This document shows positions 34,583 through 47,188 of a DNA stretch of 64,000 nt, piece after piece. This DNA comes from an uncultured Pseudohongiella sp. GTDB lineage: Bacteria > Pseudomonadota > Gammaproteobacteria > Pseudomonadales > Pseudohongiellaceae. Every line of letters begins with the position of its first letter. Position 1 is the stretch's first letter. The stretch covers positions 2,028,438 through 2,092,437 of the forward strand of contig OX638341.1 of NCBI GenBank assembly GCA_951812965.1, in the 5' to 3' direction. The notes under the pieces are model-generated. The model saw nothing but the letters and a program-made list of their open reading frames with translations. It was not told the DNA's origin and did no database searches. Position numbers and translations under genes: made by a program.

Positions 34583-37500
34583 TCACCGCGGCAGGAAAAC
34601 GAGTTCCGGCACGACGACTTCCCACTCGGAGTCGCAGCGAATGCCATCGTGGTATTGCGGTTCCGACTGTTCCTTGCTCCATCGCAGCACAGCGAAAACC
34701 GAGGCCTGGATGCAGCGCTTTTCTTCAGGGGGCTTGAACTTCGTCGACAATCGGCCTACCCGTCGTCCCGAAGCATCGAACAACTCCCAGCGGGAGTCGC
34801 CCGTGGCGGCAACCTGAAGTTTCAATTCATCGCCCGGCTGGAGTTTGCCGATCGCCTGGTGAACCGGGTTGCGCGAGACATGTCTGCCGGCGAAACCCAG
34901 GTCGACCGTCTCCAGGTCCAACCGTTTGTAGTGTGCCTTTAGCTGAAGCGCATCCCCCACTGTGTAATTTCCGCGACTCTCTTCGACCGCGCGCGAATTG
35001 TCCATTGGTGTCTCGCGGCGCAATATGGCGGGCAAGCGCTCCAGATCATCGACAAACGGATTTACTTCCTGCGCCATGCGCATCAGCGCGAGCGTTTGCC
35101 GCGCGCGGGTCATGGCGACATAGAACAGCCGTCTTGAGGCGTCGGGGTCTTCGCCCCGGCTGCGTTTTTGCCAGCCGCCGTCAAGCACGATCACGTGATC
35201 GAACTCAAGGCCCTTGGCCCGATGAGCCGTAAGCAAAAGCAGTCCCCGCTGGCGGCCGCGAATGTCGCGGCCCCATTCGGCAAGCCATTCGACAAAGTGC
35301 TCGACCGGCATTTCGCCTTCGCCAGATTCGTCGGCGTACTCGGCCACTGCTTCCCGCAACAATTCGTTCCAGCGCCCCGGCGACTGTTCATTCAACCACC
35401 GATTCATGGCAGTGGCATTCACCGTGCGTGGTTTTCGTTCCTGCACCCAGGCCAGCAGCGCCCGGGTTTCCCGCAAACGCCAGAAGCCGCGGAACTGCTC
35501 GTTGCCGAACTGCACTTCTACGCCTTCGAGTTCACAAACGGCTCGCACAGGGTCGAGAAACTGCCATTCGCGGGCGATCACCGCGCATTTGCTCCAGTCC
35601 CAATCCGGCCCGGCCAAATTGGCGAGACGGCGCAATTCGCTCAAGGCTGCCTGGGCTTGCGAGAATGCATCGCCGCTCGGAAGTATCTGTACCCGGCCAC
35701 GCGCCACGGGATCAAGATCTTGCCAGGCGCCGCCGGGTGGAGTCGCGCGCCGGGCGGAATCGATACTGATGGGACGATCCGGTTTCATCCGTTGCCGGGC
35801 GGGCGCGATCAGCGCGTTTGCTGCCTCGATGATATTGCTGATGGAGCGATAGTTGTCGATCAAGTAGGCGCGCTTGGCATCGTAGTCGGATTCGAAACGG
35901 CGGATGTACTCTACCGATGCGCCGGCGAATGCGTAAATATTCTGGTCGTCGTCGCCCACCGTGAACAAGCTCAGGCGGTCTTGTTTTTCTTTCAGCTTGC
36001 GACCGGAGAGAGCGGAGATCAGCGCATATTCGTCCGGTCCAATGTCTTGATATTCGTCTACCAGTATCCAGCGAAAACCGGCCAGCAGACGTCGCCGGTT
36101 TTCGTCCAGTTCTTCCGGTGGCAAATCCTCGCCCTGCAACAGGTCCGTGGCCTTGCGCAGAACTTCGGTAAAACTGTCGTCGTTCGGTTTGACTGTTCGC
36201 GCGGCGCCGGCGCGAACGCTGAAACTCGCGCCCAGCAGACGCATGGCAAGGCTGTGGCAGGTCATTACGGTCACGCCATTGGCGTCGTCGTCGACCAGGT
36301 CGCGTAATCGCCGCCGGATATCCGCCGCCGCGTGACGGTTGTAGGCCAGTGCGATAATGCTTCCCGGACGCTCGCGTCGCGCCCGCAGCAGCCAGGCGAT
36401 GCGATGAACAAGCACCCGGGTCTTGCCGGAACCGGGCCCCGCGAGTACCAGTACACTGGTTTGTTCGCGTTTATCGGTGACGATTCGTTCCTGTTCCGGG
36501 TTGCCGAGACTTTCGACGATGTTGCGCCAGGACGCCGCGGTCATTTGCCTGCTGATTTCAGTTTCTTTTTCCGGCAGCCAGCGCTCCAGAAACGAGTCCT
36601 GGTCCAACTCGAAGTAGTCCATCGCCAGTACGAGCGCATCGGCAATTTCCTCAATTCCCCTTTGCGCGTATTCCTCCATTACGTGGATTTGCAGCATTCT
36701 GTCTTGGTAGTGGAGTTCAAGCGGTTCGAATTCGGTTTTGCCGAAACCTCGCTTCCAGTCTTTGCCGAGGTTTATCGTCATTGCCTGCCGGAATACCGCA
36801 AGGCCCTTGTTCAGGCGGATAACTTCCAACTCGTGCAGCCACAACAAGGCGCGTTCCATCAGTTTTTGCGGATTCTTCGTCCCGGATTTCAATACGAGGT
36901 CGGAATCGATCGCATCCCGTAACAATCCCAAGCTTGTCTCGGCAAGCAAGTCGACCCCCTTGCTGCCTTTATCCAAACGGGACAACAGATGTTCAAGCAG
37001 ACATTGCGCGGCCGCGCGGCGCCGGTCGGCGGTTTTCTGCAGTGCATTCCAATTGCGGTTCAATGTGAGCCGGATCGTGTCTTGCCCTTCACGACCTCTG
37101 ATCGAAATACTGCCTTTGCGGGCGGTTTCGTCGCGGCCGTCTTCAGCAAGACCCCGCAACAATCGCATCACGCGTTCCGGCAAGGCGCTGTCGTGGCCGA
37201 GATCCTTCAGCCGCTGAGTGGTCACGCGCAGGTGCAGAATCTCCGAGTCTCCTTCCTGCAGATCGGGAGCGAGTTCGCGCATCAGGTCGATCAGCGAAGT
37301 TTCTATTGCGCGAGCGTCCGCGAGCCGATTTTGGGAATGGTTGGGCACACCTTGGTGCACGTAGGCGGTCAGCGCGGTGTCGTTGTTGGCGACTCCCAAA
37401 TCCTCAAGATCGTAAAGCGCTTTTCTGACTTGCTCCGGGCTCAGCCCCGAGACTTGCATGAGTTCGTCGGTTGATATGCCTTCCACTGCATCGGCATCGA

Positions 37501-39793
37501 TCAATCTCCCGGTAATCAGCAGCAATTGATTCCGGTAGCTCTCGAGTTCGATACGATTCCTGATTCTCTTTTTTGCCTCTTCAATTGAGTTCACCCGCAG
37601 CGACGAAGGGAAAACGTGAACCAGATTTTCTTCGCGGCTCAGCAATTTTGCCTCTTCAAGCCAGGACACAGCAGTGCGCACGCGGGTGTCGTCGGTAACC
37701 CTGTCCCGTTCGAACGCCGCTTCTTCGTCTTCCCTGAGAATCTCGCCCGCCGTTGCGACCACTTCCCCTTTCAGTTTCTTGTGTTTGTCGAGATTGCGCA
37801 GCGCGCGCAGGATTCCGTGAATTTCCTGCCGACTCAGCCGTGATCGCGCCGACAAGCCAAACTGACGTTCCACGTCGTCGGGCGTGTAAAGCAGGACGCA
37901 TCGGGCCGCGGCCAGATCCCGGCCGGCCCTGCCCGCTTCCTGCAGGTAATTTTCCAGCGACCCGGGAATGTCCGCGTGAATCACCAGGCGCACATCGGGT
38001 TTGTCGATACCCATGCCGAACGCGTTGGTCGCGACAATTACCCGCAATTCGCCTTCGGTGAATGCCTTTTGCACCGAGCCTTTCGCCTCCGGTTGCAAAC
38101 CGGCATGAAAGAAATCCGCTGCGACATCGCGTTCCCGCAGGAACGCGGCGATTTCTTCGGTTCGCCGCCTCGTTGAGCAATAGATTATCGCGCCGCCGGG
38201 AATGTCCGATGGCAGGTCGGACGAAAGTACTTCGGTGATATGGTGATATTTTTCGGCTGCAGTCGTGCGCACGACGACGAAATCGAGATTCTCGCGTCGA
38301 GCGCCGCCGTCGAAAAGTTGCAGTTCGACGCCCAGTTTCTGCCGAAAATATTGCAGAATTTCATCGACGACTTCCGGCTTGGCTGTCGCGGTCAAACACA
38401 ATACCGGCGGCTGGTATCCAGCTTGCGAATTGGTTTTCTCCTTGATGAATCTGGCAATGTAGCGGTAGTCGGGGCGGAAATCGTGACCCCATCGCGACAG
38501 ACAATGCGCCTCGTCGAGCACCCAGAGTCCGACTTCGCGCAGTTCCAGCGCCTTGCGCACCGTGGGATTCCGCAATTGTTCGGGCGAGATCAGGACAATG
38601 CCCGCATCTCCCAATCGGACGCGGTCCAGCGCTGCGCCGCGTTCGGGTAGAGACAACAAGCCGTTGATAGTTGCGCCCGACTCGATGCCGCGCTTTTCGA
38701 GGCCGGTCACCTGGTCAGCCATGAGCGCCACCAGCGGTGAAATGACAACAGTTAACGCACCCGTTTTGTTGTATCGCGAGAGTGCGGGAATCTGGTAACA
38801 GAGAGATTTTCCGGTTCCCGTCGGCAAGATGGCGAGTGCATGCTTTCCGGCCATGACGGCCTCAACAATCGATTGCTGCATGGGCTTGCCCGCATCGTCC
38901 CTGGGTTCGGGCCGAAACCCGGCGAAGCCGAACCAGCGCTTGAGTTCCTTGTTCGCGTCGTGGCGTTCCCGGCACCAGTTGCAATCCGACGCAGCGCAAG
39001 CGGTGTCGCGCAGGCGGCGGACGAGTTCGCCCGCGTCGGGAAATTGATGACGCACCCACGGCGGCATGACCGAGTCCCCGCCTGCAACAGAAAGCCAGGC
39101 CAGCGCGTAGGCGAGCGGCCAGCCGTTGTGCGCCGCGTCGTCGAGACTTTTTCTACCCTGCTTAGTGCAGGACTCTCCGCCCAGTAGTTCTAATATCACC
39201 GATCTTGCTTCAACCTCGGTCGGGCAGGAATTGCCACGAACCGTTGCGAAGAATCGGTCAAAGCCGGCGGCGATGGAGTCTCGGGTCGTCAGCCAGTGGT
39301 AAGCGAGGGACAGGTTCGCGTCCATGGCGCGGAAAGCGTCGATTTCCTCCGCGAACAATTTTAAGGATTCGCGGCAATCGAGTTCGGGATTATTGCGCAA
39401 GCCGCGAACAATGCCGCCGTCCTTGTAGTGCTTGACTAATCGGTGGTAAGGATTGCGCGGAAAGGCAAGGGGACTGAATCGCAGCGTATCCAGCAGAAGT
39501 AACTGCAGCAGCTTCGACCCAGGCGCCGTGACTTCCAGGTGTGGAAAGTCATGAGTGATCAGATTGTGGCCGACCAGGAACTCCGAATCTTCCGCGAATG
39601 ACTCAAGCTGCTTCCAGTCAGCGTGGTTGATCCTGCCGCCGAACTTTTTATGAAACGATTCGCCATCGCCCGAACGCACCGCTGCAAAAGAGTGGATGCG
39701 GGAATCTGTCTTGCCGACTTCCAGATCCAGGGCCAGGCACTTGAACGGCAAAGCAGTACTTACCGAACCCCGATCGTCGTGTGGATCAGCCAT
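34583..39793 (-). CDS. giant fused helicase: DEDD exonuclease - RecQ (SF2) - UvrD (SF1)
   Basis: A 1736-residue protein with three enzymatic parts. Residues 18-160 are a DnaQ-like 3'-5' exonuclease (ALDLEV with Asp23/Glu25; VGHNLITHDFPHL with Asp82; NPELDCRESLKLF). A Cys/His cluster (266, 271, 274, 278) precedes a RecQ helicase: PTGTGKS at 324-330, DEAH at 427-430, QEAGRAGRD ending at 626, followed by a winged-helix region. From about 1100 a full UvrD-type helicase follows: LAGPGSGKT at 1117-1125, DEYQD at 1246-1250, VGDDDQNIYAFAGA, LTAHRAKGLEF and YVAMTRAR. It could resect, unwind and degrade DNA alone. Role unknown: repair or defence. The gene stands alone on its strand beside a toxin-antitoxin pair and an IS. 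Confidence 0.92.
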   Translation of the reverse strand: MADPHDDRGSVSTALPFKCLALDLEVGKTDSRIHSFAAVRSGDGESFHKKFGGRINHADWKQLESFAEDSEFLVGHNLITHDFPHLEVTAPGSKLLQLLLLDTLRFSPLAFPRNPYHRLVKHYKDGGIVRGLRNNPELDCRESLKLFAEEIDAFRAMDANLSLAYHWLTTRDSIAAGFDRFFATVRGNSCPTEVEARSVILELLGGESCTKQGRKSLDDAAHNGWPLAYALAWLSVAGGDSVMPPWVRHQFPDAGELVRRLRDTACAASDCNWCRERHDANKELKRWFGFAGFRPEPRDDAGKPMQQSIVEAVMAGKHALAILPTGTGKSLCYQIPALSRYNKTGALTVVISPLVALMADQVTGLEKRGIESGATINGLLSLPERGAALDRVRLGDAGIVLISPEQLRNPTVRKALELREVGLWVLDEAHCLSRWGHDFRPDYRYIARFIKEKTNSQAGYQPPVLCLTATAKPEVVDEILQYFRQKLGVELQLFDGGARRENLDFVVVRTTAAEKYHHITEVLSSDLPSDIPGGAIIYCSTRRRTEEIAAFLRERDVAADFFHAGLQPEAKGSVQKAFTEGELRVIVATNAFGMGIDKPDVRLVIHADIPGSLENYLQEAGRAGRDLAAARCVLLYTPDDVERQFGLSARSRLSRQEIHGILRALRNLDKHKKLKGEVVATAGEILREDEEAAFERDRVTDDTRVRTAVSWLEEAKLLSREENLVHVFPSSLRVNSIEEAKKRIRNRIELESYRNQLLLITGRLIDADAVEGISTDELMQVSGLSPEQVRKALYDLEDLGVANNDTALTAYVHQGVPNHSQNRLADARAIETSLIDLMRELAPDLQEGDSEILHLRVTTQRLKDLGHDSALPERVMRLLRGLAEDGRDETARKGSISIRGREGQDTIRLTLNRNWNALQKTADRRRAAAQCLLEHLLSRLDKGSKGVDLLAETSLGLLRDAIDSDLVLKSGTKNPQKLMERALLWLHELEVIRLNKGLAVFRQAMTINLGKDWKRGFGKTEFEPLELHYQDRMLQIHVMEEYAQRGIEEIADALVLAMDYFELDQDSFLERWLPEKETEISRQMTAASWRNIVESLGNPEQERIVTDKREQTSVLVLAGPGSGKTRVLVHRIAWLLRARRERPGSIIALAYNRHAAADIRRRLRDLVDDDANGVTVMTCHSLAMRLLGASFSVRAGAARTVKPNDDSFTEVLRKATDLLQGEDLPPEELDENRRRLLAGFRWILVDEYQDIGPDEYALISALSGRKLKEKQDRLSLFTVGDDDQNIYAFAGASVEYIRRFESDYDAKRAYLIDNYRSISNIIEAANALIAPARQRMKPDRPISIDSARRATPPGGAWQDLDPVARGRVQILPSGDAFSQAQAALSELRRLANLAGPDWDWSKCAVIAREWQFLDPVRAVCELEGVEVQFGNEQFRGFWRLRETRALLAWVQERKPRTVNATAMNRWLNEQSPGRWNELLREAVAEYADESGEGEMPVEHFVEWLAEWGRDIRGRQRGLLLLTAHRAKGLEFDHVIVLDGGWQKRSRGEDPDASRRLFYVAMTRARQTLALMRMAQEVNPFVDDLERLPAILRRETPMDNSRAVEESRGNYTVGDALQLKAHYKRLDLETVDLGFAGRHVSRNPVHQAIGKLQPGDELKLQVAATGDSRWELFDASGRRVGRLSTKFKPPEEKRCIQASVFAVLRWSKEQSEPQYHDGIRCDSEWEVVVPELVFLPR

Positions 39794-39911: not shown

Positions 39912-39955
39912 ACGGTTTCGGGGTCGTTCGCGGGCGAGGCATCCCTCGCCCCTAC
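39912..39955 (-). repeat. 44-bp dispersed repeat, copy 1
   Basis: Read on the minus strand this 44-bp segment matches 47060-47103 with two mismatches. It contains the palindrome GGGCGAGG/CCTCGCCC and continues into a GCGAACG..CCCCGAAACCGT tail, so it is a longer unit than a simple REP hairpin. Confidence 0.75.
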
Positions 39956-40112: not shown

Positions 40113-40122
40113 TGAAATTCCC
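40113..40122. repeat. IS target-site duplication, left copy
   Basis: TGAAATTCCC directly abuts the left IS end and is identical to 42199-42208. Confidence 0.95.
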
Positions 40123-42198
40123 CAGGGCCATCTTAAAGTCGTCGTTAACCAACTGAAGCATTGCCGGAAATTTCCGGTCTGGACATTTGGCGCTGGAAGG
40201 GTTACGCTGGTTCCATGTCTGATCGCGCACATGAGCACAACGACGCTGCTGTGGAATTGGGTTTTTCCCTGTCCGCGGTCGAGGTGCGGCCTGTTTCCGA
40301 CGCGGCCGAGCGGGCCCGGTGGGATCGTGTGATGGACGCGGAGCACTATCTGGGTTTCCGAGGCATGTTCGGTCACGGGATCCGGCATGTGGCGACGGGT
40401 CCGGACGGTGAATGGCTGGCGCTGCTCGGCTGGTGCGCCGGGGCGTTCAAGGTCAAGGCGCGGGACGCCTGGATCGGCTGGGCGCCGGAGCAGCAGTTCA
40501 GGCGTTTGCGGTTGATTGCGAACAACTGCCGTTTTCTGGTGCTGCCCCGCGGTCGGGCGCCGAACCTGGCCTCCCGCGTGCTGGCGCTTTCGGCGCGCCG
40601 TCTTTCCGCGGACATGGAGGCGCGGTTCGGCCATCCGGTGCTGCTGGCGGAGACTTTCGTCGACCCGTCCCGATTCCGGGGTGTGTGTTACCGCGCCGCC
40701 GGGTGGGAGCAAGTCGGCGTGACGCGTGGTTACGCCCGGTCCGGCGGCGGCTGGGTGGCGCACGGAGAGCCGAAGACGGTGTGGCTGCGGCCTTTGGCGC
40801 CGAGCGCGGGCACTGACTTGGCCGGGCTGGCCGAACCTGCGCATTGGGGTTGCGGACAAGAGGAGCCGGAGTTGCCGGAACCCGGCCGACTGCGCAGCCT
40901 GTTCGATCACCTGCGGCAGGTGCCGGAGTTTCGTTGCGCGCGCGGGGTGCGGCACTCGCTGGCGAGCGTGCTGGCCATTGCCGTGGCGGCGAAGCTGGCC
41001 GGCGCCCAGGGGCCGACCGCCATCGCCGAGTTCGGGGCGCGGCTGGACCAGCGGCAACTGGCGGCGGTGCGGGCTTTTCGCAGTCCGACCACCGGTCGGC
41101 TGACACCGCCTTCGCGGGCGAGCATGCACCGCCTGCTGTCGGGTATCGATCCGGACGCGCTGGACCGGGCGGTACGGCGGTTCTCGGCCGCCCGGCGGCC
41201 CCCGGAGGGCGCTTTGGCCATTGACGGCAAGGCTGCCCCGCTCCATCGGCCGGCCGGGCCGGACGACGGGCGCATGTTGCTGGCCGCGGTCACGCACGGC
41301 GCCGGCATCGTCGCCGGCCAGACCGCCTCGGACAGCGCGGGCGGGGAGATCCGCGGCGCCCGGCGCCTGATCCGGGAACTGGACGTCGGCGGTCGCGTGT
41401 TGACGCTGGACGCCTTGCACAGTTGCCCGAAAACCGCGCGCTTGATCCTCGACGAAGGCGCGGACTATGTGATGCCCGTCAAGGGCAACCGCAAAACCCT
41501 GCGCGAAGACCTCGCGGCCTTCAATGCCGCCTTCGACGCCGCGCCCGCCGCCGAAACGCTCGACAAGGGCCACGGACGCCTGGAGGAACGCGCTTGCGCG
41601 CTGCTGTCGCTGGAGGAATGCCCGGACGATCTGGCCGCCCTGCCGGGACGCCGCCAGGCTTTCCGCATCCGCCGGCGGCGCACCGTCCTGAAGAAAAACA
41701 CCACCACCGTCGAAACCGTGTACGGTCTCACTTCGCTCGGCGCCGACCGCGCCGGCCCCGCGGAAATACTCGCCCTGAACCGCGGACACTGGGAAATCGA
41801 AAATCGACTTCACTATGTTCGCGATTGGTCCTGGGACGAGGATCGGTCTCGGGTCCGCAACGGCAAACTGCCCCGCAATCTGGCCTGCCTGTCCAACGTC
41901 GCCATCTCCATCATCCGCCTGCGCGGCCGCTTCAAGCACCAACCACAGGCCCAGCGACATTACGCCGCCCGCCAGGGCGACGCCCTGCGCGAAGTCGTCA
42001 ACGCCGCCTGACCCAGCCCCAAAACGCACCGGCCCAAACCGTACCGAACAAGCTGGCAAGTGCCAATATCGATTCCCGCCCAACCGCTCCCGTCCACAGA
42101 ACGAGCAAAACCGTCAAAACAACACCCCCCCAGCCCGACCGCAATCAAACCAAACAACTGAGAACCCCAACTACCTATGTGACTATAAGATGGCCCTG
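40123..42198 (+). mobile_element. complete ISAs1-family insertion sequence, 2076 bp
   Basis: The ends are CAGGGCCATCTTAAAGTC (40123-40140) and, on the other strand, CAGGGCCATCTTATAGTC (42198-42181): 17 of 18 match. The element is flanked by a perfect 10-bp target duplication, TGAAATTCCC at 40113-40122 and 42199-42208, within the range known for this family. One gene, a DruA-domain transposase, fills it. The element is visibly more GC-rich than its surroundings. Intact ends, an open transposase and a perfect duplication indicate a recent insertion. The right end lies 53 bp upstream of oxyR. Confidence 0.95.
40215..42011 (+). CDS. ISAs1-type transposase with N-terminal DruA (DUF4338) domain
   Basis: A 598-residue protein. 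Residues about 30-190 match DUF4338, the domain of DruA from the Druantia anti-phage system: WDRVMDAEHYLGFRGMFG, DAWIGWAPEQQFRRLRLI, NNCRFLVLP, NLASRVLALSARRL, LAETFVDPSRFRGVCYRAAG. After a linker comes an ISAs1/IS4-type DDE transposase with LAIDGKAA (Asp337), LTLDALHS (Asp399), GADYVMPVKGNRKTL and RGHWEIENRLHYVRDWSWDED (Glu529). An ATG at 40161 is in frame, but 40215 starts just before the conserved domain. It moves the IS that contains it. The role of the DruA part in transposition is not known to me. Confidence 0.92.
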   Translation: MSDRAHEHNDAAVELGFSLSAVEVRPVSDAAERARWDRVMDAEHYLGFRGMFGHGIRHVATGPDGEWLALLGWCAGAFKVKARDAWIGWAPEQQFRRLRLIANNCRFLVLPRGRAPNLASRVLALSARRLSADMEARFGHPVLLAETFVDPSRFRGVCYRAAGWEQVGVTRGYARSGGGWVAHGEPKTVWLRPLAPSAGTDLAGLAEPAHWGCGQEEPELPEPGRLRSLFDHLRQVPEFRCARGVRHSLASVLAIAVAAKLAGAQGPTAIAEFGARLDQRQLAAVRAFRSPTTGRLTPPSRASMHRLLSGIDPDALDRAVRRFSAARRPPEGALAIDGKAAPLHRPAGPDDGRMLLAAVTHGAGIVAGQTASDSAGGEIRGARRLIRELDVGGRVLTLDALHSCPKTARLILDEGADYVMPVKGNRKTLREDLAAFNAAFDAAPAAETLDKGHGRLEERACALLSLEECPDDLAALPGRRQAFRIRRRRTVLKKNTTTVETVYGLTSLGADRAGPAEILALNRGHWEIENRLHYVRDWSWDEDRSRVRNGKLPRNLACLSNVAISIIRLRGRFKHQPQAQRHYAARQGDALREVVNAA

Positions 42199-42208
42199 TG
42201 AAATTCCC
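42199..42208. repeat. IS target-site duplication, right copy
   Basis: TGAAATTCCC directly after the right IS end, identical to 40113-40122. Confidence 0.95.
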
Positions 42209-42251
42209 ACACCTTGCAGCCTTGATTGACAAAAGCGATTAACATGAGCTG

Positions 42252-43175
42252 ATGATTCCAACGATCAGGCAACTCAGGTACCTGGTGGCCGTGGCTGAGC
42301 ACCGGCACTTCAGCAAGGCAGCCGAGGCCTGTTTCGTTACCCAGTCGACCTTGAGTACGGCGATTCGGGAACTCGAGCAGCAACTCGGCGTGGTGATCTT
42401 CGAACGCAATCGCAAGTCGGTGCTGATCACGCCGGTGGGGGAAAAGCTGCTGGCGCGGGCACAGACGATTCTCGGCGAAGTCGAGGATTTCGTCAGTCTG
42501 GCCCGGGCGGAAAAGGGCTCCCTGACCGGTGAAATCCGGCTTGGCGTCATTCCCACTATAGGGCCTTTCCTGTTGCCGAAGATTCTCGGCGAGTTGCGTC
42601 AGACATACGGCAAATTGCGTTTTTATCTCAAGGAGGAAATCAGTTCGCGCCTTGCGGTCATGTTGACGCGGGGCCAGCTCGACGTGCTGATACTGGCTTT
42701 TCCTTTTCCATTGCGCGATGTGGAAACCGTGACCTTGTTCGAGGACGAGTTTCTGCTTTGCATGCCATCCGGACATACGCTGGAGAAGCTGCAGTCGGTG
42801 CGGCAGAAACAATTGCGCGGGGAAGCGCTGCTGCTGCTCGAAGAAGGCCATTGCCTGCGCGACCATGCACTCGAAGCCTGTGAGTTGCAATCGGCCGAAA
42901 CCAACCTGGTGTACCAGGGCACGAGCCTGCATACGCTGGTGCAGATGGTCGCGGGCGGCCTCGGCCTGACCTTGCTGCCCGCCATGGCGGTAGCGGGCGA
43001 TGTGCTCGGCGACACGAATCTGCCCTTGCGCCGTTTCAGTTCGGAGAAAGTCGCTAGGCGTATCGGCATGGCCTGGCGCAAATCCGATCCGCGCCGGGAT
43101 GAATATCGAATCCTGGCTGAATTCATTGCCGAGCGTTGCGTTCCTTCGGCAGCCACGACCGCCGTCCGCAAATGA
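42252..43175 (+). CDS. oxyR: hydrogen peroxide-sensing regulator OxyR
   Basis: A 307-residue LysR-type regulator with close OxyR features: IRQLRYLVAVAEHRHFSKAA winged helix at the N-terminus and LLLLEEGHCLRDHALEAC with Cys201 and Cys210 at the 9-residue spacing of the redox disulphide. The segment YQGTSLHTLVQMVAGGLGLTLLP is also typical. It would activate peroxide defence genes when oxidised. The IS inserted 53 bp upstream of the ATG and may have separated the gene from its promoter; no clear -35/-10 pair is visible in the remaining 43 bp. The phosphopantetheinyl transferase gene overlaps its stop by 4 nt. Confidence 0.9.
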   Translation: MIPTIRQLRYLVAVAEHRHFSKAAEACFVTQSTLSTAIRELEQQLGVVIFERNRKSVLITPVGEKLLARAQTILGEVEDFVSLARAEKGSLTGEIRLGVIPTIGPFLLPKILGELRQTYGKLRFYLKEEISSRLAVMLTRGQLDVLILAFPFPLRDVETVTLFEDEFLLCMPSGHTLEKLQSVRQKQLRGEALLLLEEGHCLRDHALEACELQSAETNLVYQGTSLHTLVQMVAGGLGLTLLPAMAVAGDVLGDTNLPLRRFSSEKVARRIGMAWRKSDPRRDEYRILAEFIAERCVPSAATTAVRK

Positions 43176-47059: not shown

Positions 47060-47103
47060 GTAGGGGCGAGGCATGCCTCGCCCGCGAACGGCCCCGAAAC
47101 CGT
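47060..47103 (+). repeat. 44-bp dispersed repeat, copy 2, with adjacent half-palindrome
   Basis: Two mismatches to the copy at 39912-39955. The perfect palindrome GGGCGAGGCATGCCTCGCCC lies within it, and a related GGGCGAGGCATGCCTCCCCC lies 50 nt on (47115-47134), giving a paired arrangement between ffh and rpsP. Confidence 0.75.
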
Positions 47104-47188
47104 ACAACCCCCGTGGGCGAGGCATGCCTCCCCCCTACCTGCTGAAGGCGGACGCGCACACCATCTTTCATTGCCTGTCGAATTGCCT

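What the first reader, a model, noticed from the sequence alone, without database searches (positions are those of the whole stretch)
40113..42208. Intact IS whose transposase carries the Druantia DruA domain
The transposase joins a full DUF4338 (DruA) domain to an ISAs1-type DDE transposase. The IS is complete: 17/18 matching ends, perfect 10-bp duplication TGAAATTCCC, open frame. DruA domains are best known from anti-phage Druantia, where their activity is obscure; an active IS with the same domain suggests that defence DruA came from a transposon accessory domain that may bind or process DNA.
Basis: partly seen in the sequence, partly recalled or inferred. Interest (0 to 1): 0.7.

Follow-up and report, generated by a model that had tools for sequence, protein, structure and literature searches.

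The report
Jumping gene with a Mom-like domain
A recently active bacterial jumping gene carries, on the front of its transposase, a domain related both to the Druantia antiphage protein DruA and to the phage Mu enzyme Mom that chemically tags DNA, which gives a testable idea of what this puzzling domain does.

Summary
Window 40123-42198 is an intact 2076-bp ISAs1-family IS (17/18-bp ends, 10-bp duplication, open frame). Its genome holds eight full-length copies; five, the window's included, are identical, and seven of eight have perfect 10-11-bp duplications.

The N-terminal domain matches PF14236 (DruA, 76 bits) over profile positions 51-220 of 297, but no PADLOC DruA model. Profile comparison shows homology to Mom, the phage Mu DNA-modifying acyltransferase (pooled E 8e-11; generic GNATs and reversed Mom give nothing) and, slightly more strongly, to Druantia DruA. 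In residues it follows Mom: the window keeps Mom's H, Y, R, S, D and Y; of these only the last Y is general in Druantia DruA. A model made without Mom rows ranks Mom third in the PDB. The domain is under strong purifying selection (dN/dS 0.11; DDE part 0.32). Relatives are fused to Tn5-type transposases or adjoin IS66, Tn5-type and other transposases.

Most likely the transposase carries a Mom-like acyltransferase acting on DNA; activity is unproven. The ML tree, rooted on Mom, nests Druantia DruA among transposon and phage forms, but the alternative is not rejected (p 0.30).

The parts
40113..40122 (.). left copy of the target duplication TGAAATTCCC
40123..40140 (+). left terminal inverted repeat CAGGGCCATCTTAAAGTC
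   Evidence: 17 of 18 to the right end
40218..42011 (+). transposase gene, 597 aa from ATG (a longer frame opens at TTG 40161)
   Evidence: NCBIfam ISAs1 transposase 174.7 bits
40281..40733 (+). Mom-like / DUF4338 (Pfam DruA) domain, residues 22-172; AF2 models made on 40218-40862
   Evidence: PF14236 76 bits; hhalign of the fused group to 9 Mom rows E 1.8e-6, of pooled rows 7.9e-11; GNAT fold, Mom third in the PDB
40344..40349 (+). H43-Y44, shared with Mom
40530..40532 (+). R105, shared with Mom
40572..40574 (+). S119, aligned with S124 of the 241-aa Mu Mom frame; PDB 8bv8 is titled 'inactive mutant S124A'
   Evidence: that both use one numbering is inferred
40662..40664 (+). D149, shared with Mom
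40689..40691 (+). Y158, shared with Mom and with Druantia DruA
40902..41183 (+). DDE_Tnp_1_assoc domain, residues 229-322
41205..41861 (+). DDE_Tnp_1 catalytic domain, residues 330-548
   Evidence: invariant D, D and E columns of alignment A4, taken as the triad by inference
42181..42198 (-). right terminal inverted repeat CAGGGCCATCTTATAGTC
42199..42208 (.). right copy of the target duplication TGAAATTCCC

Best explanation
The element is an intact, recently mobile ISAs1-family IS. Its transposase has an N-terminal GNAT-fold domain of the DUF4338 family that is homologous to Mom, the DNA adenine-modifying acyltransferase of phage Mu. I think the domain is an acyltransferase that acts on DNA: brought to the element's ends or target by the transposase, it would place an acyl mark on bases there, protecting the transposing DNA or its new copy from host nucleases, as mom does for the transposing phage Mu (recalled). 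Shown here: intact element, several recent copies, homology to Mom, GNAT fold, conserved active-site-like residues, purifying selection, repeated association with unrelated transposases. Inferred: catalysis, DNA as substrate, protection as the benefit.
For: Homology, with Mom rows not chosen through DUF4338 (9 of the 11): pooled 25 transposon-type and phage DUF4338 rows E 7.9e-11, fused rows alone 1.8e-6, other transposon-type 1.6e-8, phage 3.4e-7; controls reversed Mom E 0.04-0.4, generic GNATs 0.8. With all 11 Mom rows 5.4e-15 for 26 rows; ISAs1 domain against Mom prob 0.1. PHROG 1384 'Mom-like DNA modification protein' hits 2 of 8 DUF4338 proteins tested under 1e-3: L025 5.2e-6, L075 5.5e-7. 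Pfam Mom hits 2 of 6 ISAs1-fused relatives under 1e-3: L053 2e-4, L054 1.4e-4, both below the curated cut-off. Residues: H43, Y44, R105, S119, D149, Y158 are kept in 22, 20, 23, 23, 17, 22 of 23 transposon-type rows (four of them of unknown context) and in 11, 11, 11, 10, 11, 11 of 11 Mom rows. Fold: AF2 model without Mom rows, pLDDT 75.0, pTM 0.71; Mu Mom 8bv8_B is third in the PDB, E 1e-5. Selection: dN/dS 0.11 in the domain, 0.32 in the DDE part, window against L044. Recurrence: 18 of 32 non-Druantia-type loci are fused to or beside a transposase. In print: DUF4338 as a GNAT domain, PMC10853773 (passage); Mom as a GNAT that acylates adenine N6, PMC7824862 (passages).
Against: No activity was measured. 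By profile score Druantia DruA is nearer than Mom to each group once the two Mom rows found through DUF4338 (L096, L098) are left out: fused 1e-7 against 1.8e-6, other transposon-type 6.6e-13 against 1.6e-8, phage 1.2e-13 against 3.4e-7. The window's own domain gets no Pfam Mom hit, no NCBIfam family and only E 0.32 for PHROG 1384. Sequence profiles of DUF4338 did not find the Mom chain in the PDB. The two Tn5-fused rows lack Y44. Nothing shows that the IS is protected from a nuclease.
Confidence: 0.45

Rival explanations
1. The Mom-like domain no longer catalyses; it is a DNA-binding module that helps the transposase find its ends or target sites.
For: Targets look non-random: GT precedes and AC follows the duplicated bases in 6 of 7 perfect sites each, and 5 of 8 insertions lie 13-27 bp from a REP-like palindrome. 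Both motifs were seen first and tested afterwards.
Against: The Mom-like residues are kept in most transposon-type rows; a pure binding module would not need them. The ISAs1 elements without the domain that I could delimit have similar ends and duplications.
Confidence: 0.32
2. The domain acylates a protein (the transposase itself or a host factor) and so regulates transposition, like ordinary GNAT protein acetyltransferases.
For: GNAT fold; protein and small-molecule N-acetyltransferases are among the Foldseek matches.
Against: The five generic GNATs of the genome do not match by profile and no GNAT family of Pfam hits the window domain, while Mom matches; the shared residue set is Mom's.
Confidence: 0.12
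3. The domain is a passenger of no importance, fused by chance and carried along.
For: It is rare: the domain alone matches 2 of 72,556 plasmid records, while the whole protein matches 774.
Against: dN/dS 0.11 in the domain, lower than in the DDE part; fusions to two unrelated transposase types and adjacency to others.
Confidence: 0.05

Closest known systems
ISAs1 family insertion sequences (NCBIfam NF033564)
   Same: DDE_Tnp_1_assoc plus DDE_Tnp_1, CA[CG]GGC-type ends, 10-bp duplications
   Different: extra N-terminal domain of about 200 residues; 2076 bp instead of the 1252-1473 bp of the three domain-less elements delimited
Mom family DNA modification proteins (PF25680; phage Mu Mom, PDB 8bv8)
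   Same: colinear profile alignment, shared H, Y, R, S, D, Y, GNAT fold
   Different: no Pfam Mom hit for the window domain; RD..GW and NN.RF motifs are its own; fused to a transposase
Druantia type I DruA (PADLOC DruA)
   Same: PF14236 family; fused rows E 1e-7 by profile; RD..G motif, last Y and G
   Different: DruA is about 400 aa with a further C-terminal part; lacks the H, Y, S and D and mostly the R in the alignment used; its own PADLOC model, beside druD/druE where tested (L158)
DUF4338-transposase fusions of the Tn5 type (L026, L051)
   Same: PF14236 domain N-terminal to a transposase
   Different: other transposase type, Y44 replaced by P

Membership tests
ISAs1 insertion sequence | ISAs1 transposase domain | tested here: met
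   NF033564 174.7 bits over cut-off 70
ISAs1 insertion sequence | short terminal inverted repeats and 8-10 bp duplications (family values recalled) | tested here: met
   17/18 bp; perfect duplications 10 bp in four and 11 bp in three of 8 copies
ISAs1 insertion sequence | length about 1.2-1.5 kb with one transposase domain (recalled) | tested here: not met
   2076 bp with an added N-terminal domain; filed as a variant for that reason
Pfam PF14236 (DUF4338, DruA) | profile score over 27 bits | tested here: met
   76 bits, profile 51-220 of 297
Druantia type I | PADLOC DruA model | tested here: not met
   no PADLOC family
Druantia type I | druB-druE beside it | tested here: not met
   inside an IS with its own ends; flanking frames look like a RecQ-type helicase and a LysR-type regulator (read by eye)
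Mom DNA modification family | Pfam PF25680 over 27.1 bits | tested here: not met
   no hit for the window domain; relatives L053, L054 21.5 and 22.0 bits
Mom DNA modification family | homology by profile comparison with controls | tested here: met
   E 1.8e-6 (fused rows) to 7.9e-11 (pooled) without the two rows found through DUF4338; reversed Mom and GNAT controls nothing
Mom DNA modification family | conserved H, Y, R, S, D, Y | tested here: met
   all six in the window
Mom DNA modification family | modifies adenine in DNA | not testable with these tools
   needs LC-MS

The most novel reading that the evidence does not exclude
Bacterial DDE transposons carry their own base-modifying enzyme: a Mom-like acyltransferase, fused to or beside unrelated transposases (ISAs1, Tn5 type, IS66, others), that marks the moving DNA. 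Druantia DruA is a derived branch of this transposon/phage family, taken into defence together with helicases and nucleases, so that DruA's obscure activity descends from DNA acylation.
Probability: 0.28. Interest if true: 0.88.

Novelty: new variant of a known kind. Interest (0 to 1): 0.66.

Why it matters
As far as the passages I read go, DruA and DUF4338 have no known activity. Linking them by profile, residues and fold to a characterised DNA-modifying enzyme, with the transposon and phage forms as the sequence bridge (Mom to Druantia DruA is not detectable directly), turns an open question into a mass-spectrometry experiment. A transposase that also modifies DNA would be a new kind of self-protection for an IS. 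I saw no such link in the listings of ten searches of the paper library; a GNAT assignment of DUF4338 is in print. Papers outside that library were not searched.

Tried and rejected
Rejected or led nowhere: (1) That this is Druantia's own DruA fused to a transposase: PADLOC does not hit it. (2) That the domain is nearer to Mom than to Druantia DruA by profile: so it looked for the fused rows, but two of the 11 Mom rows had been found through DUF4338; without them Druantia scores better for every group. (3) A different end or duplication type caused by the domain: not seen. I found ends for 3 of 6 domain-less ISAs1 loci (L121, L124, L126; none for L120, L122, L123) and for 4 of 5 domain-bearing loci from other genomes (L027, L040, L070, L071; not L035). 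(4) Finding the IS in viral contigs with the whole protein: 2 candidates, none a relative. (5) Finding Druantia druA DNA in E. coli with L018: no match. (6) Relatives of the small phage DUF4338 L075 in phage records: no match. (7) Direct Druantia DruA to Mom comparison: not detectable. (8) My first frame extraction took antisense frames for minus-strand loci; redone by homology. (9) Programmed frameshift as a general feature: of the four elements read, the three G249 copies share a slippery A7G and the Thiodictyon copy breaks elsewhere; not pursued. (10) Rooting: AU tests rejected neither alternative. (11) Of 32 non-Druantia-type loci, 14 were not tied to a transposase; many are short or at contig edges and were not followed.

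Full report
OBSERVATION. Window 40123-42198 is a complete IS: 17 of 18 matching ends and a 10-bp direct repeat TGAAATTCCC outside them. The longest sense frame, 597 aa from ATG 40218 (which also lists a 765-aa antisense frame), has the Pfam order DruA (22-172), DDE_Tnp_1_assoc (229-322), DDE_Tnp_1 (330-548) and scores 174.7 bits as an ISAs1 transposase. The genome (one contig, 3.43 Mb, unnamed) has 8 full-length copies, 5 of them identical, the window's included; 7 of 8 have perfect duplications, four of 10 bp and three of 11 bp, and L007 is imperfect. The 8 PF14236 matches and the 8 ISAs1 matches of the genome are these copies. It is not a 'full' DruA: the match spans profile positions 51-220 of 297 and no PADLOC model hits.

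WHAT THE DOMAIN IS. PF14236 covers several groups. For hhalign I used 8 ISAs1-fused rows, 11 other transposon-type rows, 6 small phage rows, 17 Druantia-type, 7 phage DruA-like, 11 Mom and 5 generic GNAT rows. Fused rows gave: other transposon-type E 5e-63, small phage 7e-28, Mom 1.5e-9, Druantia 1e-7, generic GNATs prob 0.1. A wider set of 26 rows against the 11 Mom rows gave prob 98.4, E 5.4e-15 over 170 columns. But two of the 11 Mom rows (L096, L098) had been found with a DUF4338 query and could flatter the score. Without them: fused 1.8e-6, other transposon-type 1.6e-8, phage 3.4e-7, all pooled (25 rows) 7.9e-11; also without Mu Mom, pooled 1.1e-10. Controls: reversed Mom E 0.04-0.4, GNATs against Mom 0.8, ISAs1 domain against Mom prob 0.1. 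So homology to Mom stands, but Druantia DruA is the nearer relative by score for every group (1e-7, 6.6e-13, 1.2e-13; pooled 1.2e-17). Druantia DruA against Mom is not detectable: the transposon and phage forms bridge the two. Single-profile searches agree in part: PHROG 1384 'Mom-like DNA modification protein' hits 2 of 8 DUF4338 proteins tested under 1e-3 (L025 5.2e-6, L075 5.5e-7), with 0.029 for L086 and 0.32 for the window; Pfam Mom hits 2 of 6 ISAs1-fused relatives at 2e-4 and 1.4e-4, under its cut-off, and L025 and L072 at 0.01 and 0.05. PDB sequence searches with DUF4338 profiles did not find Mom.

RESIDUES AND FOLD. Of the columns conserved in Mom, the window keeps H43, Y44, R105, N116, S119, D149, G155, Y158, A160, G167 and K186 (one of these, K186, is Q in Mu Mom itself). 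For H43, Y44, R105, S119, D149, Y158 in that order: 22, 20, 23, 23, 17, 22 of 23 transposon-type rows (four of unknown context, two of them from viral contigs); 11, 11, 11, 10, 11, 11 of 11 Mom rows; 6, 6, 6, 4, 0, 6 of 6 small phage rows; 0, 0, 5, 0, 0, 17 of 17 Druantia rows. The Druantia rows are distant and hard to align around D149. S119 aligns with S124 of the 241-aa Mu Mom frame, and the PDB title of 8bv8 reads 'phage Mu protein Mom inactive mutant S124A'; that both use one numbering is my inference. An AF2 model of the domain has pLDDT 82.4, pTM 0.81 and matches GNAT structures (84 PDB matches at E up to 0.001), but two Mom rows were in its alignment and Mom was not in the 50 rows shown. 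A second model without Mom rows (pLDDT 75.0, pTM 0.71) ranks NAT10, an RNA cytidine acetyltransferase, first and second and Mu Mom third (E 1e-5, TM about 0.5; its other chain is 47th). In the viral library the 50 rows shown are uncharacterised proteins, GNATs, endonuclease fusions and a few others, none named Mom. A GNAT assignment of DUF4338 is already in print (PMC10853773, passage read).

FUNCTIONAL CONSTRAINT. Against the 89% relative L044 (a MAG labelled Pseudomonadales), dN/dS is 0.11 in the domain, 0.09 in the associated domain, 0.32 in the DDE part. The differences of copies L006 and L008 from the window copy are synonymous at 14 of 16 coding sites.

RECURRENCE. PF14236 occurs in 17 of 369 genomes of the class and 17 of 398 of the phylum, the window's genome in both. 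Of the matches that were given a locus, leaving out the window genome's copies, the Druantia-type loci and one double entry, 32 loci remain; 18 are fused to or beside a transposase: 13 by Pfam on neighbour or fused frames and 5 by tblastn to the window's ISAs1 part. Types: ISAs1 fusions (L027, L030, L035, L037, L040, L042, L053, L054, L058; by Pfam L027, L030, L053 and L054 show the ISAs1-associated domain only), Tn5-type fusions (L026, L051), Tn5-type neighbours (L023, L050), IS66 neighbours (L024, L028, L043), UPF0236 neighbour (L049; a transposase family by recall), DDE_Tnp_1 neighbour (L062). A viral contig, L094, also has an IS66 neighbour. The other 14 were not assigned; of them only L034's neighbour was tested, without a Pfam family, and L055's own frame, without a transposase domain.

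ORIGIN OF DEFENCE DRUA. With Mom as outgroup the ML tree (64 rows, 200 columns) puts transposon forms at the base and nests Druantia DruA with phage forms (80/96, 80/97, 92/93). The AU test does not reject Druantia as sister to all other PF14236 rows (p 0.304), nor one clade of transposon forms (p 0.354). The outgroup and Druantia branches are long. Five Druantia-type loci were looked at with wider flanks. L158 has DruE and DruD by PADLOC; its 952-aa frame and the like-sized 956-aa frame of L160 have no hit; L160 resembles L158 otherwise by frame sizes only. L157, L159 and L161 have two other genes after DruA: HerA-like in all three (weaker in L161), NurA in L157 and L159.

MECHANISM. Most likely (0.45): a Mom-like acyltransferase on DNA, brought to ends or target by the transposase, giving protection like that of mom in Mu. 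Steps shown: intact mobile element, homology, fold, residues, constraint. Steps inferred: catalysis, substrate, benefit. Rivals: inactive DNA-binding module (0.32), protein acylation (0.12), passenger (0.05). Target choice looks non-random: GT before and AC after the duplicated bases in 6 of 7 perfect sites each, chance of 6 or more of 7 for GT about 1e-7 from flank composition (motif chosen after seeing it). And 5 of 8 insertions lie 13-27 bp from a REP-like palindrome with about 680 matches per strand at up to 2 mismatches, mostly the same palindromic places by the rows shown; by density alone I estimate P about 1e-6 (hand calculation; one search computed 7e-8 with 412 exact matches), without correcting for intergenic preference. 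The domain-less ISAs1 elements that I could delimit share end type and 10-bp duplications, so the domain is not needed for that chemistry.

LITERATURE. DUF4338 is in 3 papers of the library; no paper has both ISAs1 and DruA or Druantia and GNAT. Passages only were read of PMC10853773, PMC12774648, PMC12458937, PMC13192584, PMC8565338, PMC7251935, PMC7824862; other papers were seen only in listings.

Noticed in passing
window 39932-39951, 47064-47083, 47115-47134; genome-wide: A REP-like palindrome GGGCGAGGCATGCCTCGCC has about 680 matches per strand in the 3.4-Mb genome, some in regular arrays; 5 of 8 IS copies sit 13-27 bp from one.
   Followed up: partly
L157, L159, L161: Druantia-type DruA is followed by a HerA-like ATPase gene in all three (weaker in L161) and by a NurA nuclease gene in L157 and L159: a possible DruA-NurA-HerA defence set.
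   Followed up: partly
L161 (G569:C1:2592500-2612000): Its DruA-like gene lies directly after Mu-type transposase, TniB and TniQ genes, so that it may be cargo of a Tn5053/Tn7-like transposon.
   Followed up: partly
L027, L035, L040 (G249): Three DruA-ISAs1 copies share an A7G run after which the reading continues in the -1 frame; L027 and L040 have perfect 10-bp duplications at different sites. Programmed frameshifting or trans mobilisation is possible.
   Followed up: partly
L026, L051: DruA domain fused to Tn5-type transposases, 774 and 679 aa frames, with Y44 replaced by P.
   Followed up: partly
L115 2732-4714: A phage DruA-like protein seems to be interrupted by an intein just before its conserved G..GRR motif (translation; read by eye).
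   Followed up: no
L075, L077, L078, L082, L084, L086, L089: A family of about 230-256-aa DUF4338 proteins on viral contigs, with the Mom-like H, Y, R and last Y but not D149 (L078 not in the residue count).
   Followed up: partly
window 42199-42252: The IS duplication ends 43 bp before the ATG of a LysR-type (OxyR-like by eye) frame, so that the IS may alter its expression.
   Followed up: no
window 34583-39793, minus strand: A 1736-aa frame looks like a RecQ helicase joined to a UvrD-like helicase (read by eye).
   Followed up: no
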